Positions 10,041-16,116 of a stretch of 64,000 nucleotides of DNA are shown one piece after another. The DNA lies in NCBI GenBank assembly GCA_938027595.1, contig CALJAK010000008.1, forward strand, positions 1 through 64,000. Reading direction: 5' to 3'. The DNA comes from an uncultured Thermoproteales archaeon (GTDB lineage Archaea > Thermoproteota > Thermoprotei > Thermoproteales > Thermoproteaceae). The position numbers and the translations under genes were made by a program. Within the stretch, counting starts at the first letter, position 1. Every line of letters begins with the position of its first letter. The notes under the pieces were generated by a model, which saw nothing but the letters and a program-made list of their open reading frames with translations, was not told where the DNA came from and ran no database searches.

Positions 10041-11021
10041 CTAACTGGTGCCTTTTTTAAAGTAGGGCTTCACTATGTACTCATGTACCTGCGGCGGGGG
10101 TATGTCTAGCTTGGCTGAGTAGCGGCTGAGAGTTACGGCCCCCAGCTTGGTCAACTCCTCTACCGCTAGCCCCACTACGCAACTCCCACGGCCGCATTTC
10201 GTCACGATTTTGAAGGGGGGTGGTGGATGTATCGGGGCGATTAGCGTGCCTCTACTGTGGTAATTCCTCACCTCCACAGCCATGCCGCTCTCTAACGCTG
10301 GTGTGAAAGTCTTGGGGTGGAAGTTCTTCGCGCCGACGTTGGCGGCTTCTATGGCTTCATATATAGACATCATGGAGAGTAGGTATGCCTCTGGCACTTC
10401 TCTAGGGTCAGCCGTCATTACGCCGGGGGCGTCTGTCACCAGCGTCACTTTCCTAGCGCCCACCTCCCTGCCTATGTATGTGGCGGTGTAGTCACTGCCG
10501 CCCCGCCCCAGAGTGGTGAAGCGCCCCTCGCCGTCTCTGCCAATGAAGCCCGTCACTACCGCCACGCCGCCTCGAGTCATTTCGTCTCTGCCCTCCAGCC
10601 GGAGGGGTCTGGCGCTGCCGTAGGTGTTGTCTGTCACAATGGGCGCTATGTAGAGCCCGGCGTCGATAGACATTTTCCGCAGTACTGCGTGTAGCATCGT
10701 GGCGGACAGCCTCTCGCCGAAGGAGGCGAAGTGGTCTCTAACCCAGGGGCCCCTGGCCGACAGAGATGACTCCAACTCCTTCAAGAGGGGGACTACGCTG
10801 TTCTCTACCGAGAGTGCTCTAGCTATAGACAAGTGGCGGTGGTATATCTCCTCTAGCAGTAGGTAGCTGCGGGTGCGCTCTAGCTCTATCAACATGTCCG
10901 TGACGCCCTTCACTGCCGACACTACTACAATCACGTCGCCCATCCCGGCGACGAACTGCGCCGCTTTGAGAAAATCGCCCGGCGTCCTCAACAACGACCC
11001 GCCGATCTTTACCACTTTCAT
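10041..11021 (-). CDS. lysC: Aspartate kinase
   Basis: It phosphorylates aspartate, the first step to threonine, methionine and (in other lineages) lysine. The 326-residue protein begins MKVVKIGGSLLR, the amino acid kinase signature. It has SFGERLSA near residue 120, GFIGRDGEGRFTTLGRGGSDYTA near 180-200 and TDAPGVMTADPREV near 220. It is shorter than classical aspartokinases (about 450 residues). The C-terminal part after residue ~270 could hold at most one reduced ACT domain, so feedback control by end product may be weak or absent. Its ATG overlaps the thrC stop by 4 bp. Confidence 0.93.
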   Translation of the reverse strand: MKVVKIGGSLLRTPGDFLKAAQFVAGMGDVIVVVSAVKGVTDMLIELERTRSYLLLEEIYHRHLSIARALSVENSVVPLLKELESSLSARGPWVRDHFASFGERLSATMLHAVLRKMSIDAGLYIAPIVTDNTYGSARPLRLEGRDEMTRGGVAVVTGFIGRDGEGRFTTLGRGGSDYTATYIGREVGARKVTLVTDAPGVMTADPREVPEAYLLSMMSIYEAIEAANVGAKNFHPKTFTPALESGMAVEVRNYHSRGTLIAPIHPPPPFKIVTKCGRGSCVVGLAVEELTKLGAVTLSRYSAKLDIPPPQVHEYIVKPYFKKGTS

Positions 11022-12133
11022 TTTTCCAACATGTGGACTAACTCTTCGCTGTTTCTAATTTCTCTAGTGGAGATCTCCACGGCGTCTGGGTCTTTCAACG
11101 CGTGTCCAGTGACTACCGCCACCACAGTGCCCGACAGATTTAGCTTCAGCAACGCAGCTATTGACGCAGCGCCCGCCGGCTCGGCGCCGATGCCGTCTCT
11201 CGCGGCTAGCAAACGCTGAGCTTTCAAAATCTCCCCGTCTGTCACTTGCGTGAAGAACCCGTCCGACTGCTGCACCGCCGCTACGGCTTTGCGCCAATTT
11301 ATCGGTTTGCCTATCTTTATGGCGGTGGCTACTGTGTGGGGGTTGTCTAGGAAGAGGGGCTCTTCGAGGCCGAGTTGCCAAGCTTTGGCAATGGGGGCCG
11401 CCCCCTCTGCCTGCACCCCCACCATCTTGGGCAGCCTCCTGCAGAGCCCTAGTTGGTGGAGTTCTCTAAAGCCTTTCCAAATGGCTGAGATATTGCCGGC
11501 GTTGCCCACCGGCACCACTACGTAGTCTGGGCAGCCCAGTTCTTCAAATATTTCGAAAGCTATGGTTTTCTGCCCCTCGAGACGCCAGGGGTTGAAACTG
11601 TTGAGGGGGTAGGCGTATTTAGTGCCGTAAGTGAGGACGTACTCAAGCGCCCGGTCGAAAAAGCCGTCTATGGTCACGATCTCGGCGCCGTGGAGAGCTG
11701 CTTGCATGAGTTTGCCCCTAGCCACGTTGCCCCTGGGGAGCACTACGTAGCACGTCATCCCAGCCCGCGCCGCGTAGGCGGCTGCGGAGGCGGCTGTGTT
11801 GCCCGTGGAGGCCACTACCACTTTGTCGGCGCCGCTGTTTTTAGCCACCGTGATCCCCAGCGCCATCCCCCTGTCTTTGAAACTACCCGTGGGGTTTGCC
11901 CCCTCGAACTTTATGTATATCCCCCTGCCCAACTGCGACTCCACTAGCGGCGTGCCGCCCTCTCCCAGAGTGACTCCCTGCCTCACTGGCAGCATTGTGC
12001 CGTAGCGCCAGACTCCCCTGCCGGAGGGTGCCCAGTATATTGGTGAAATTATTTCGAGAAGCCCCCCGCACTTGGGACATCTATATAGTCTGAAGTTTGG
12101 CGTGTATACAGCGCCGCAATTTATGCAGCGCAT
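11018..12133 (-). CDS. thrC: Threonine synthase
   Basis: It converts O-phosphohomoserine to threonine with pyridoxal phosphate. The 371-residue protein starts with a zinc ribbon (MRCINCG and YRCPKCGG), as in many archaeal threonine synthases. The PLP lysine is in PTGSFKDRGM near residue 83, and the phosphate-binding SGNTAA-type loop is VASTGNTAAS. It is the first gene of the operon. ATG 12133 places the zinc ribbon at the N terminus. The TATA box on this strand (12171-12180) would put transcription start near 12150. A leaderless ATG at 12153 is out of frame by one base and would need one more G in the run at 12142-12145. Confidence 0.93.
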   Translation of the reverse strand: MRCINCGAVYTPNFRLYRCPKCGGLLEIISPIYWAPSGRGVWRYGTMLPVRQGVTLGEGGTPLVESQLGRGIYIKFEGANPTGSFKDRGMALGITVAKNSGADKVVVASTGNTAASAAAYAARAGMTCYVVLPRGNVARGKLMQAALHGAEIVTIDGFFDRALEYVLTYGTKYAYPLNSFNPWRLEGQKTIAFEIFEELGCPDYVVVPVGNAGNISAIWKGFRELHQLGLCRRLPKMVGVQAEGAAPIAKAWQLGLEEPLFLDNPHTVATAIKIGKPINWRKAVAAVQQSDGFFTQVTDGEILKAQRLLAARDGIGAEPAGAASIAALLKLNLSGTVVAVVTGHALKDPDAVEISTREIRNSEELVHMLEK

Positions 12134-12170
12134 TGAACTGTCCCCGAATCCATGGGGGGCACATCACTCA

Positions 12171-12211
12171 GATATATAAACATTGCGTAGGTTCTGCGAA
12201 AAGTTTATATA
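12171..12211. promoter_or_regulatory. Divergent promoter pair between thrC and the arg operon
   Basis: Two TATA boxes face away from each other. TTTATATATC on the - strand (12171-12180) drives thrC, and TTTATATA on the + strand (12204-12211) is centred about 24 bp before ATG 12231 of the argX-like gene. They are only about 30 bp apart, so the threonine and arginine operons could be controlled together from this spot. Confidence 0.65.
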
Positions 12212-12230
12212 TAGATTGGTTTTTGGCTAT

Positions 12231-12895
12231 ATGGAACAGGGGCCAGAGATGGGGCGATTTACATCGTCACAGACAACCCCACAATTTCTGAGAAATACAT
12301 TGTAGACGCGCTTGCGGCTAGGGGCCGCAGTGCTTCCATCCTAAACGTCTCTGAAGCCGTAGTGCGCCAAATCCCCGGCTTGACGTTGTTGAGGACTAGG
12401 AATCCCTACTTGGCTATTGTCTACGGCTCCATGTCGGCGGTGGTTTTGAACCAACCGCACGCCATCTTGTCTGCCCTCAACCGCCTCTCTTGGATGCAGA
12501 AGTTCGGTCCGCCCTACGCCGTGGTGTCTAGCGACCACACTGTGGAGAAGGTGGAGTTGGAGAGGCCTTGGGTCACTATGACTGCGTGGCGTCTCGGTCT
12601 CGACGGCGTTGTGACTAGCGTCGAGGGGGCGAAGAGCGTGGTGGAGCACAGACTGTACATGAGGAACCCCCTGGCTAAAGTGTCTGTGTTAGTGCCCAAG
12701 CCGCGGGAGACTGTCTACGCCTTTGCCACTGTCAAAACTGCCGACGGGGTGGTGGGCGAGTTACTGCGGTATCTAGGTCTCCACTACGCCGGTGTGACTC
12801 TAGGCCGCTATGGGGGCGAGATGCGAGTGATTGACGTAGATCCCGTCCCCCCCTTGAGTAGAGAAGAGGCGGAGTTGGTAGTGGAGTTGTTGTGA
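12231..12895 (+). CDS. Divergent LysX/ArgX-like ligase, reduced ATP-grasp, with a one-base frame break near its start
   Basis: By position this is the ligase that attaches an amino acid to the LysW carrier. The body (12254-12895, 213 codons) matches LysX at its N terminus (IYIVTDNPTISEKYIVDALAARG), centrally (SVVEHRLYMRN against the family's IIEHRELMGN) and loosely at the end (VIDVDPVPPL). It is only about 221 residues instead of about 280. The stretch with the ATP-binding lysine and glycine-rich loop (PPIGSWGR in Sulfolobus) is missing or unrecognisable. The leaderless ATG 12231 runs into a stop at 12303; one additional G in the GGGG at 12251-12254 would join it to the body. GTG 12362 would remove the conserved N terminus. 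Activity is doubtful. Confidence 0.6.
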
Positions 12896-13944
12896 TGAGA
12901 GTCTGTATTGTGGGGGCTTCTGGATTCACCGGCGGCGAGTTGCTGCGCATTTTGCTGCAGCATCCACACGCCGAGGTTGTCTGCGCTACTTCTAGAAAAT
13001 TCAAGGGGGAGTATGTATATAGAGTACACCCGAACTTGAGGGGCGTCACTCAGTTGAAGTTCGTGGAGCCCAACCTCGACGTGGTTCTCAAGGCGGACGT
13101 GGTTTTCCTCGCTCTGCCGCACGGCGAGTCTGTCAAGTGGGTGCCGCAGCTGCACCAGTCTGGGGTGGCTGTCTTTGACCTCAGCGCCGACTTCCGGCTG
13201 AAGGATCCAGAGGCGTACGTAGAGTGGTACAAGTGGCCACATCCCCATCCCTATCCAGACCTCTTGGCGAAAGCTGTCTATGGACAACCAGAGCTCCATA
13301 GAGAGGAGCTCGTGGGGGCTAAGCTAGTGGCGGTGCCTGGCTGTATGGCTACGGCTTCTATACTCATGTTGGCGCCGCTGGCTAAACACCTAGGCGGCGT
13401 GCCCCCAGTGATTGACGCCAAGATTGGCTCTAGTGGGGCCGGCGCCGAGGGGTCGGTGGTGGATTTACACAGCTACAGGACGTACGTGGTGAGGCCCTAC
13501 GAGCCTGTCCACCACCGCCACATTGCCGAGATTGAGCAAGAGTTGTCTCGCCTCGCCGGCAGGCGGGTGTCTGTGGCTTTCACGCCGCACGCGGTGGATT
13601 TGGTGAGGGGCATCTTCGCCACTGGACATGTGTACCTAGACAAATTGCCCACCGAGGCGGAGATGTGGAGGTATTTCAAGTCCACCTTCGGCGACTCTAA
13701 GTTTGTCCGTATTGTGAAAGACAAGCTGGGGATGGCTAGGTACCCCAACGTCAAGTACGTGTTGGGGTCTAACTACGTAGATGTGGGGTTTGAGCTAGAC
13801 GCCAGGTTGGGTAGAGTAGTGACTTTCTCAGCTATCGACAACTTAGTCCGGGGGGCCTCTGGGCAGGCGGTGCAGGCTTTCAACATCGCCATGGGGTTCC
13901 CCGAAGACGCTGGGCTTAGACACATCCCGCCGCTGCCCATATGA
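12895..13944 (+). CDS. argC: N-acyl-gamma-glutamyl/aminoadipyl-phosphate reductase (ArgC/LysY)
   Basis: The 349-residue NADPH-dependent reductase turns the acyl phosphate on the carrier-bound intermediate into the semialdehyde. It starts [20 protein letters not shown] with the GASGFTG nucleotide loop. The catalytic cysteine is in [10 protein letters not shown] near residue 148, and the family motifs HRHIAEIEQ and FTPHAVD follow. Next to lysW it should act on the LysW-bound substrate (LysY/ArgC type). ATG 12895 overlaps the preceding stop (TGATG); a GTG one codon upstream is less likely. Whether it serves lysine, arginine or both cannot be read from sequence, but argG and argH downstream favour arginine. 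Confidence 0.92.
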
Positions 13945-14720
13945 TTGTGGTCAAGTTGGGGGGGTCTGTCTTCTGTAGAGACCCCCAGCGGGCTGCGGCT
14001 GGCTTGGCTGGCGTCCGCGACGCGGTGGTGGTTCACGGCGGTGGGTGTTATGTAAATCAATTACTGAAAGAGATGGGTGTGGAGCCCAGGTTTTTGACTC
14101 ACCCCGGCGGTTTGGTGAGTCGCTACACAGACTGGGAGACGCTGAGGGCGTTCGTCATGGCTATGTCTTGGATTAACAAATACATCGTGGCGTATCTAAA
14201 CGCCTCCGGCACCCCAGCTGTGGGTCTCACGGGCGCCGACGGCGCTGTGGTTAGAGCTAGACGCAAAGAGAGAGTGTTGGTGATAGACGAGCGGGGGCGC
14301 CAGCGGGTGGTAGACGGCGGATATGTGGGGCGCATTACGGAAGTGGATGTGAAAGCACTTTCCCCACCGCCGGTGAAGGTGGTGGCGCCAATCGCCATGT
14401 CCGACAGGGGGGAGTTGTTAAACGTCGATGGGGATCAGTTGGCTTTCGAAATTGCCGCCAGAGCTGGAGCCAAGTGGTTAGTGATATTGAGCGACGTGGA
14501 TGGCTTGTTGATCGACGGGCGGGTGGTGCCGAGGTTGACGCCGGAGGAGGCTGAAGCTTTAGCCAAGTCGGAGGAGGTGAGGGGCGGCATGAAGCGGAAG
14601 CTTTTGATGGCGGCTGAGGCTGCCAGAGCCGGCGTGGAGGTGGTGATATACAACGGGCTTGTGGAAAACGCCGTGGAGGCTGCGTTGAGCGGCGCGGGGA
14701 CTCACGTTAGAAAAGTTTAA
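13941..14720 (+). CDS. argB: LysW-aminoadipate/glutamate kinase (ArgB/LysZ)
   Basis: A 259-residue amino acid kinase that phosphorylates the carboxyl group of the carrier-bound glutamate or aminoadipate. It begins [11 protein letters not shown] and has [14 protein letters not shown] near residue 30-45, VGLTGADG near 95, [10 protein letters not shown] near 160 and ILSDVDGLL near 185, all typical of ArgB/LysZ. The ATGA overlap with argC shows co-translation. A run of seven G codes the KLGGS loop and is in frame here. The pairing with LysW suggests the LysZ-type reaction. Confidence 0.92.
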
Positions 14721-14742: not shown

Positions 14743-14925
14743 ATGGCGGCGAAATTGATTGTCCAATGTGGCGTCTGCGGCACTGAGTTCGAACTGCCAG
14801 ACGACGTGATGGATGGCGAAATTACGTCTTGCCCCACCTGCGGCGCTAGGTACATTGTGAGAGTGAGGGGGAACTCCGTGTCGCTGGAGGAATTCAAAGG
14901 CGACGTGGAGGACTATGGTCAGTAA
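14743..14925 (+). CDS. lysW: LysW amino-group carrier protein with an unusual C terminus (EDYGQ)
   Basis: A 60-residue acidic zinc-ribbon protein, with cysteines 9, 12, 30 and 33 as two CxxC pairs. In known LysW proteins the conserved C terminus is EDWGE, and the last glutamate's side-chain carboxyl is joined to the amino group of glutamate or aminoadipate. Here the reading frame ends GAC TAT GGT CAG TAA, giving EDYGQ. The acceptor position is thus a glutamine amide, which could not be phosphorylated directly. The Trp is also replaced by Tyr. The gene follows argB by 22 bp. Either the gene is losing function together with its ligase, or it uses a variant chemistry. Confidence 0.88.
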   Translation: MAAKLIVQCGVCGTEFELPDDVMDGEITSCPTCGARYIVRVRGNSVSLEEFKGDVEDYGQ

Positions 14926-16116
14926 GTCGGGGCGAGAGTAGTCCTGGCGTACTCCGGCGGTTTGGACACCACCGTCGCGGTTAAGTGGCTCACGGAGAGG
15001 GGTTACGAGGTTTACACAGTCACCGTAGACGTTGGGCAGGAGGAGGACTTTTCCGAAGTGGAGGAGAGGGCGTACAAAGCCGGCGCGGTGAAACATTTCT
15101 ATATAGATGCCAAGCGTCAATTCGCCGAGGAGTATATAGCTCGCTCCATCTTCATGAACGGCATGTATGAGGGCAAGTACCCACTGGGCACCGCTTTGGC
15201 TAGACCACTCATAGTGGAGAAAGCGATTGAGGTGGCGAGGCGGGTGGGGGCCGAGGCGGTGGCTCACGGCTCTACTAGCAAAGGCAACGACCAAGTGCGT
15301 TTTGACGTGACTGCCAAAGCGCTGGCGCCGGACCTCGCCATAGTAACCCCAGCGAGAGTTTGGGGCATGTCTAGAGTTGAGGAGGTGGAGTACGCCAAAT
15401 CTCGCGGGTTGCCCATTGGAGACGTCCACAAGAAGTACAGCATTGACGACAACCTCTGGTCGCGCTCTATCGAGGGGGGGCCGTTGGACGACCCCGCCGT
15501 GGAGCCTCCAGAAGACGCCTTTAGGTGGACTGTCTCGCCGGAGAGAGCTCCCGACAGCCCCACTTATCTAGAGATAGAGTTCGAGCGGGGGCTCCCCAAG
15601 TCAGTCAACGGGGAGAGGCTGCAGTTGGTTGAGTTAGTGACGTCGTTGAATCGCGTGGGTGGACTCAACGGCGTGGGGCGGATTGACCACATAGAGAACC
15701 GCTTGGTTGGCTTCAAGAGTAGGGAGGTGTACGAAGCGCCGGCGGCGGTGATTCTATACAACGCCCATGTGGATTTGGAGAAGTACGTCCTCACGCCGAG
15801 GGAGTTGCGGTTTAAACACCACGTCCTCGACCCCCAGTGGGCTGACTTGGTGTATGGAGGTCTCTACGTAGAGCCTCTTAGGGAAGCCATAGAGAAAGCC
15901 GCTTTGGAGATGGAGAAGTGGGTCACCGGCGTGGTGAGGCTGAAGTTGTACAAAGGCGGCGTTTGGGTAGTGGGGAGGGAGTCTCCCTACGGCGGCTACA
16001 GTAGAGAGTTGGCTGACTACGGGGGTGGTTGGTACCCCACAGACGCGGAAGCCCGCGGCTTCATTGAAATGTGGAGCCTGCACTCCATCACTGCGAGGCG
16101 GAGGCGCGGTCTATAA
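14915..16116 (+). CDS. argG: Argininosuccinate synthase, one base out of frame at its start
   Basis: It joins citrulline and aspartate using ATP. The protein carries the AYSGGLDTTV pyrophosphate loop at its N terminus, AHGSTSKGNDQVRF near residue 115 and the full C-terminal domain, about 395 residues, normal for ArgG. No ATG, GTG or TTG lies in frame upstream of the SGGLDTT loop. The TTG at 14962 would delete it. ATG 14915, inside the lysW end, is where a coupled start is expected, but it reads into TAG 14939. One extra G in the GGGG at 14929-14932 would join it perfectly. The rest of the gene is intact, so the gene is probably real and either the sequence or the start is unusual. Confidence 0.88.

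What the first reader, a model, noticed from the sequence alone, without database searches (positions are those of the whole stretch)
12231..12895. Shrunken LysX/ArgX ligase that seems to lack the ATP-grasp core
Position and two end-segments identify the gene as the ligase for LysW, but it is about 60 residues short. The region with the ATP lysine and glycine-rich loop is not recognisable, and the ELNDVPEF metal-binding segment is VIDVDPVPPL. Together with the altered LysW tail this suggests a coupled change of the ligation step, possibly a new variant pathway for arginine/ornithine in this lineage, since argC, argB, argG and argH look functional.
Basis: partly seen in the sequence, partly recalled or inferred. 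Interest (0 to 1): 0.8.

Follow-up and report, generated by a model that had tools for sequence, protein, structure and literature searches.

The report
Amino-acid-sensing frameshift switches in archaeal genes
The odd 'shrunken ligase' gene has no usable start codon in its own reading frame: like many amino-acid-making genes of these hot-spring archaea, it starts in the wrong frame and appears to be made only when the ribosome, starved of the very amino acid the pathway makes, slips back one base at a G-GGG site, which would be a new way for cells to sense amino acids.

Summary
The 212-codon body (12257-12892) is real and conserved. It is an ArgX/LysX-fold protein that lost the ATP-grasp core.

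The surprise is upstream. The body has no in-frame start. The leaderless ATG (12231, 27 nt after a TATA box) is in another frame, and the body is reached only by a -1 shift at G-GGG-NNN sites. NNN is CCA, AAA or CGA (Pro, Lys, Arg). The same design precedes argG (CGA) and thrC (ACA/ACG) in this window. Elsewhere it precedes lysX and homocitrate synthase (AAA), leuA (CTC), citramalate synthase (ATT), ilvB (Val+Leu, plus Ile in Thermoproteus), carA, pheA, aroD, transketolase, trpB, trpD and trpS. In 19 of 19 sites of one genome the codon encodes the pathway's product. Conservation spans Pyrobaculum and Thermoproteus; argG extends it to a second family.

Best explanation: scarcity of the cognate aminoacyl-tRNA stalls the ribosome, peptidyl-tRNA-Gly slips -1, and the enzyme is made. 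No experiment was done. A 2016 review knows no such example.

The parts
12204..12213 (+). TATA box of the argX-like gene; its first base is 27 nt before the ATG, so the ATG sits at the expected transcription start (leaderless)
   Evidence: sequence
12231..12305 (+). 0-frame leader ORF MEQGPEMGRFTSSQTTPQFLRNTL* of the argX-like gene
12239..12245 (+). slip site 1: G-GGG-CCA (Pro sensor codon)
12251..12257 (+). slip site 2: G-GGG-CGA (Arg sensor codon)
12257..12895 (+). body: 212-codon ArgX/LysX-fold protein without ATP-grasp core, in the -1 frame of the leader
12172..12180 (-). TATA box of the divergent thrC operon, 27 nt before its leader ATG
   Evidence: sequence
12121..12153 (-). 0-frame thrC leader ORF ATG GAT TCG GGG ACA GTT CAA TGC GCT GCA TAA
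12139..12145 (-). slip site G-GGG-ACA (Thr sensor codon); ACA or ACG in all 10 species examined
11018..12142 (-). thrC body in the -1 frame (here with an in-frame ATG at 12133; most other species have none)
14915..14941 (+). 0-frame argG leader ORF ATG GTC AGT AAG TCG GGG CGA GAG TAG, overlapping the end of lysW
14929..14935 (+). slip site G-GGG-CGA (Arg sensor codon); CGA in 17 of 17 Thermoproteaceae argG leaders examined
14932..16116 (+). argG body (argininosuccinate synthase) in the -1 frame, no canonical in-frame start
12892..14720 (+). argC and argB with ordinary ATG starts, downstream in the same operon
14743..14925 (+). lysW; C-terminus EDYGQ instead of EDYGE

Best explanation
The gene is one of a genome-wide set of amino-acid-gated -1 frameshift switches. 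Shown by sequence: a leaderless ATG opens a short 0-frame with one to three in-frame sites xxG-GGG-NNN, the enzyme lies in the -1 frame, mostly without its own start codon, and NNN encodes the amino acid(s) made by that pathway. Inferred: when the amino acid is plentiful, the ribosome reads NNN and soon hits a 0-frame stop, so no enzyme is made. When its aminoacyl-tRNA is scarce, the ribosome waits with an empty A site, peptidyl-tRNA-Gly slips back one base from GGG onto the overlapping GGG (perfect re-pairing), and translation continues into the enzyme. Tandem sites act as an OR gate (ilvB: Val/Leu/Ile; argX-like gene heading the shared Arg/Lys genes: Pro/Lys/Arg). The 212-aa product is a probably non-catalytic ArgX/LysX-fold protein, perhaps a partner of the real ligase or of LysW.
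For: Frame architecture and TATA spacing. Conservation: argG CGA 17/17, lysX AAA 10/10, homocitrate synthase AAA 10/10, thrC ACR 10/10, argX-like CGA 16/17 genomes. ilvB leaders with Val, Leu and Ile codons in three Thermoproteus genomes. A scan blind to function of a complete genome finds amino-acid genes with cognate codons, functions confirmed by HMM. 19/19 codons match the product; shuffling codons among genes never exceeds 13/19 in 200,000 trials. Other GGGG phases, +1 bodies and A/C/T runs give no such genes. In thrC the 0-frame codon changes only synonymously while the body residue changes. argG of a second family again has an Arg codon in a 0-frame leader with the body at -1. Single-tRNA hungry slippage is a known elementary event (PMC8211752).
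Against: No expression data. Sequence alone cannot show that slippage happens or that it responds to starvation. carA and this genome's thrC have an in-frame ATG a few codons after the site; Trp-codon sites create a GTG that could be an ordinary start. Leaders of trpB, trpD, pheA and citramalate synthase were seen in one genome only. One genus of the family has ordinary starts for argG and the argX-like gene. In the second family the P-site codons (GGA, AAC, GAA, ATA) slip less obviously. The Pro codon in the argX-like and carA leaders fits only if proline comes from ornithine or arginine.
Confidence: 0.87

Rival explanations
1. RNA polymerase slippage: the G4 run is transcribed with an extra G in a fraction of mRNAs, which restores the frame; expression is constitutive and low.
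For: One added G gives exactly the same protein; homopolymer slippage is a known recoding route (PMC5009743).
Against: Four G is a short run; it does not explain why the 0-frame codon after GGG encodes the pathway product in 19/19 sites, why tandem sites carry different products, or why the phase is always xxG-GGG.
Confidence: 0.06
2. Attenuation by leader peptide: the short 0-frame ORF is a uORF that stalls at its sensor codon, and the enzyme is started independently at a non-canonical codon in the body frame.
For: Same sensing logic as trp/ilv attenuators; short 0-frame ORFs with cognate codons; an in-frame ATG follows in carA and in this genome's thrC.
Against: Most bodies have no ATG/GTG/TTG near the conserved N-terminus; the invariant G-GGG before the codon has no role in this model; leaders show no unusual folding (z -1.7 to +1.9); the leaders are leaderless at the mRNA 5' end.
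Confidence: 0.06
3. Assembly errors or pseudogenes: one G was lost from homopolymers.
For: The window's genome is a 24-contig assembly, and homopolymer indels are common errors.
Against: The same leaders occur in many independent genomes, several of them complete (P. oguniense TE7, Pyrobaculum sp. WP30), and the bodies are intact core enzymes.
Confidence: 0.01

Closest known systems
Bacterial amino-acid attenuation leader peptides (trp, his, thr, ilv operons)
   Same: Cognate codons in a short translated leader sense charged tRNA; the ilv-type combination of Val, Leu and Ile codons recurs.
   Different: Output here is a reading-frame change of the ribosome itself, with one to three codons instead of runs and no terminator/antiterminator structure found.
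Bacterial release factor 2 (prfB) autoregulatory +1 frameshift
   Same: Frameshift early in the gene acts as sensor and effector: a short 0-frame product when the sensed factor is plentiful, the full protein when it is scarce (PMC5009743).
   Different: +1, at a stop codon, one gene and one factor; here -1, sense codons, many genes and most sensed molecules are amino acids.
Hungry-codon -1 frameshifting (Gallant; HIV env with arginine deficiency; human mitochondria)
   Same: P-site tRNA slips when the A-site codon lacks its aminoacyl-tRNA (PMC8211752).
   Different: Known as stress or experimental effects; the 2016 review knows no example that makes a protein for starvation conditions (PMC5009743).
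LysX/ArgX ATP-grasp ligases
   Same: The 212-aa body shares the fold (3vpb, TM 0.86).
   Different: It lacks the ATP-binding Lys and Gly-rich loop, the DWRTN..ARGG block and the ELN metal site; the genome has full-length homologues elsewhere.

Membership tests
Programmed -1 ribosomal frameshifting | Product frame overlaps the initiating frame at -1 | tested here: met
Programmed -1 ribosomal frameshifting | Conserved slippery site allowing tRNA re-pairing | tested here: met
   xxG-GGG in Thermoproteaceae; less clear in the second family
Programmed -1 ribosomal frameshifting | Trans-frame protein is made in the cell | not testable with these tools
   needs proteomics or ribosome profiling
Amino-acid-sensing translational regulation | Sensor codon matches the pathway product | tested here: met
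   19/19 in G009, shuffle test
Amino-acid-sensing translational regulation | Expression responds to starvation of the cognate amino acid | not testable with these tools
   no expression data
Attenuation leader peptide | Mutually exclusive RNA hairpins or terminator after the leader | tested here: not met
   no unusual folding in 11 leaders at 37 C; conserved alternative structures were not searched
LysX/ArgX ligase | ATP-grasp fold similarity | tested here: met
LysX/ArgX ligase | ATP-site Lys/Gly-rich loop and metal-binding residues | tested here: not met
   absent in the alignments; not filed as a ligase

The most novel reading that the evidence does not exclude
Thermoproteales control amino-acid biosynthesis through a whole network of amino-acid-specific 'hungry codon' -1 frameshift switches, including multi-input switches (Val/Leu/Ile; Pro/Lys/Arg; Phe/Tyr/Trp) and a tRNA synthetase, using the reading frame itself as the sensor.
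Probability: 0.85. Interest if true: 0.97.

Novelty: categorically new. Interest (0 to 1): 0.94.

Why it matters
It would be the first natural system known to me in which hungry-codon frameshifting serves as a physiological amino-acid sensor, a recoding network controlling many genes by one rule, and an answer to how these archaea regulate amino-acid synthesis. It predicts start sites and N-termini of core enzymes that annotation pipelines probably mis-call, and it suggests programmable switches: change one codon, change the amino acid sensed.

Tried and rejected
Family HMMs on the body gave no hit. Altered ligation chemistry was rejected because full-length homologues exist. Sequencing error was rejected by conservation. 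Control scans with A, C and T homopolymers, other GGGG phases and +1 bodies gave no amino-acid genes beyond an overlapping register of the ilvB site. Unfiltered G-GGG hits without TATA are mostly antisense noise. Hits with GGG-TTG (methyltransferase, GTP cyclohydrolase III), GGG-CTG (MoaD/E) and GGG-TGG (ABC permease) fit no pathway and are probably chance GTG/ATG starts. Homocitrate synthase in Sulfolobales and Pyrodictiaceae has ordinary starts. Regulatory RNA structure in the leaders: none evident.

Full report
What the finding describes. The segment 12231-12895 is 665 nt and therefore not one frame. The conserved protein is the 212-codon stretch 12257-12892, ending TGA at 12893-12895. The ATG at 12231 is in another frame (24 codons, stop 12303-12305). 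The body has no ATG, GTG or TTG from the upstream stop at 12212 to its conserved start. Pfam and NCBIfam give no hit, but 37 of 41 genomes searched encode it.

The protein itself. A 30-sequence profile matches LysX/ArgX homologues from the same genomes at E 8.5e-17 and, by sequence, S. tokodaii ArgX 3vpb at E 1.3e-6. AlphaFold gives pLDDT 95.6, and Foldseek ranks ArgX (3vpb) first with E 6.8e-14 and TM 0.86. The KPxxGSWGR loop, the DWRTN..ARGG block and the ELN metal site are missing. It is a shortened ArgX-fold protein that should not bind ATP. The genome also holds full-length LysX (G000:C17:10420-11235, 324.7 bits, over the cut-off 275.6) and a second full-length homologue beside carB (G000:C6:19662-20444, 205.8 bits), so the 'missing ligase' idea falls. 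The body's role is not known; I think it most likely a non-catalytic partner of ligase or LysW (inference only).

The real anomaly: the start. In Pyrobaculum the leader reads ATG GAT CTG GGG CCA GAG GGG AAA GTG GGG CGA, with the body in the -1 frame and a TATA box 26-27 nt before the ATG. In Thermoproteus it reads ATG GAA TTT TCG GGG AAA GCG GGG CCA GCG GGG CGA. Each GGG is preceded by G in the 0 frame, so a peptidyl-tRNA-Gly on GGG can re-pair one base upstream on GGG, and the body frame is open through all three sites. The codons after GGG are Pro, Lys and Arg, in a different order in the two genera. This window's copy lost the Lys site.

Same design at other genes. In this window argG is reached from ATG GTC AGT AAG TCG GGG CGA GAG TAG (14915-14941), and thrC from ATG GAT TCG GGG ACA GTT CAA TGC GCT GCA TAA (12153-12121, minus strand). 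Across species: argG CGA 17/17; lysX ATG GGG AAA 10/10; homocitrate synthase AAA 10/10; thrC ACA or ACG 10/10, six of them with an additional GGG-ATT (Ile). Thermoproteus ilvB leaders (L232-L234) read ATG GAT TCG GGG GTC AGT TCG GGG CTC GAG GGG ATC or close variants: Val, Leu, Ile. A scan of a whole Pyrobaculum genome (G009), blind to function, for leaderless ATG + xxG-GGG + coding -1 frame found leuA (CTC), citramalate synthase (ATT), ilvB (GTA, CTC), a trpB-like gene and trpD (TGG), tryptophanyl-tRNA synthetase (TGG), prephenate dehydratase (TTT), aroD/chorismate mutase (TAT), transketolase N-subunit (TAT, TGG), carA (CGA), lysX and homocitrate synthase (AAA). Functions were confirmed by NCBIfam. 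A cysteine-synthase-like PLP enzyme has TGT (Cys), tentative. In the held half of the window's own genome, transketolase has TAT+TTT, carA CGA+CCA, leuA CTC, aroD TAT and TrpRS TGG.

Statistics. Taking one leader per gene (G009), 19 of 19 site codons encode a product of the gene's pathway. From the amino acids that follow xxG-GGG inside G009 coding sequence the chance is about 1e-22; without the Trp genes and the argX-like gene it is 13 of 13 and about 1e-15. Shuffling the codons among the genes never gave more than 13 of 19 (or 11 of 13) in 200,000 trials. The gene set was fixed after seeing the leaders, so the composition-based figures are indicative; the shuffle test depends less on that. 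Counting Pro for the argX-like gene is an assumption (proline from ornithine or arginine), so the subset test omits that gene. Controls: GGGG in other phases, +1 bodies and A/C/T runs yield no amino-acid genes other than an overlapping register of the ilvB G5 site. In thrC the 0-frame codon varies only synonymously (ACA/ACG) while the overlapping body codon changes residue. CGA is the rarest Arg codon (3.1%), CCA the rarest Pro codon and ATT the rarest Ile codon; CTC is common, so rarity is not required. The codon before GGG is mostly TCG in the tallied leaders, meaning unknown.

Reach. argG in ten genomes of a second family has a leaderless ATG/GTG whose frame is again -1 to the body, with an Arg codon (CGA or CGG) in the first six 0-frame codons, but with other P-site codons: GGA in four (G-GGA-CGA), AAC in four (A-AAC-CGG), GAA and ATA in one each. 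This supports the Arg codon, not the G run, as the constant element; slippage there is less obvious. One genus of the first family has ordinary starts for argG and the argX-like gene, and homocitrate synthase of Sulfolobales and Pyrodictiaceae has ordinary starts.

Mechanism. Shown: the frame architecture, the conservation and the codon identity. Inferred: the ribosome initiates at the leaderless ATG; with the amino acid plentiful it reads the sensor codon and stops in the 0 frame; with it scarce, the empty A site lets peptidyl-tRNA-Gly slip -1, so the enzyme is made. Single-tRNA P-site slippage with a vacant A site, independent of a stimulatory RNA element, is the known 'hungry' mode (PMC8211752), and the leaders show no special structure. 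Transcriptional slippage and leader-peptide attenuation are kept as rivals but explain the codon rule or the missing starts poorly.

Known or new. The 2016 recoding review says that no examples are known of such frameshifting making proteins for starvation conditions (PMC5009743). The 2021 archaeal review lists a single -1 case in Archaea (PMC8211752). The GeneTack survey names no Pyrobaculum or Thermoproteus case in its main text (PMC3711429). Literature searches for Pyrobaculum/Thermoproteus frameshifting found nothing of this kind; most subscription papers and all preprints were not searchable. I rate the system as categorically new, built from a known elementary event.

Noticed in passing
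window 14920-14922: The only LysW of this genome ends in Gln (EDYGQ, CAG) where all other Pyrobaculum seen end in Glu (EDYGE); the terminal Glu side chain is the attachment point in known LysW, so Lys/Arg synthesis may be broken here or the base may be an error. The change also alters the second codon of the overlapping argG leader.
   Followed up: partly
window 12231-12257: This genome's argX-like leader has lost the GGG-AAA (Lys) site that nearly all relatives have (a 6-nt in-frame deletion).
   Followed up: yes
G000:C6:19662-24521 (minus): carA, carB and the second LysX/ArgX homologue lie in one direction behind a leader with GGG-CGA and GGG-CCA, so the likely ArgX may be under an Arg/Pro switch.
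   Followed up: partly
L107:4710-5722: A cysteine-synthase-like PLP enzyme has a leaderless ATG TTG GGG TGT leader: a possible Cys switch.
   Followed up: partly
argG leaders of G019-G029 (L045, L058, L060-L067): A second archaeal family has no canonical argG start; the leader frame is -1 to the body and always holds CGA or CGG, but the P-site codon differs (GGA, AAC, GAA, ATA).
   Followed up: partly
G001:C1:1204728-1205279: A genome matching P. oguniense TE7 in contig length carries a second, stop-containing copy of the argX-like gene near thrC, probably a decayed duplicate.
   Followed up: no
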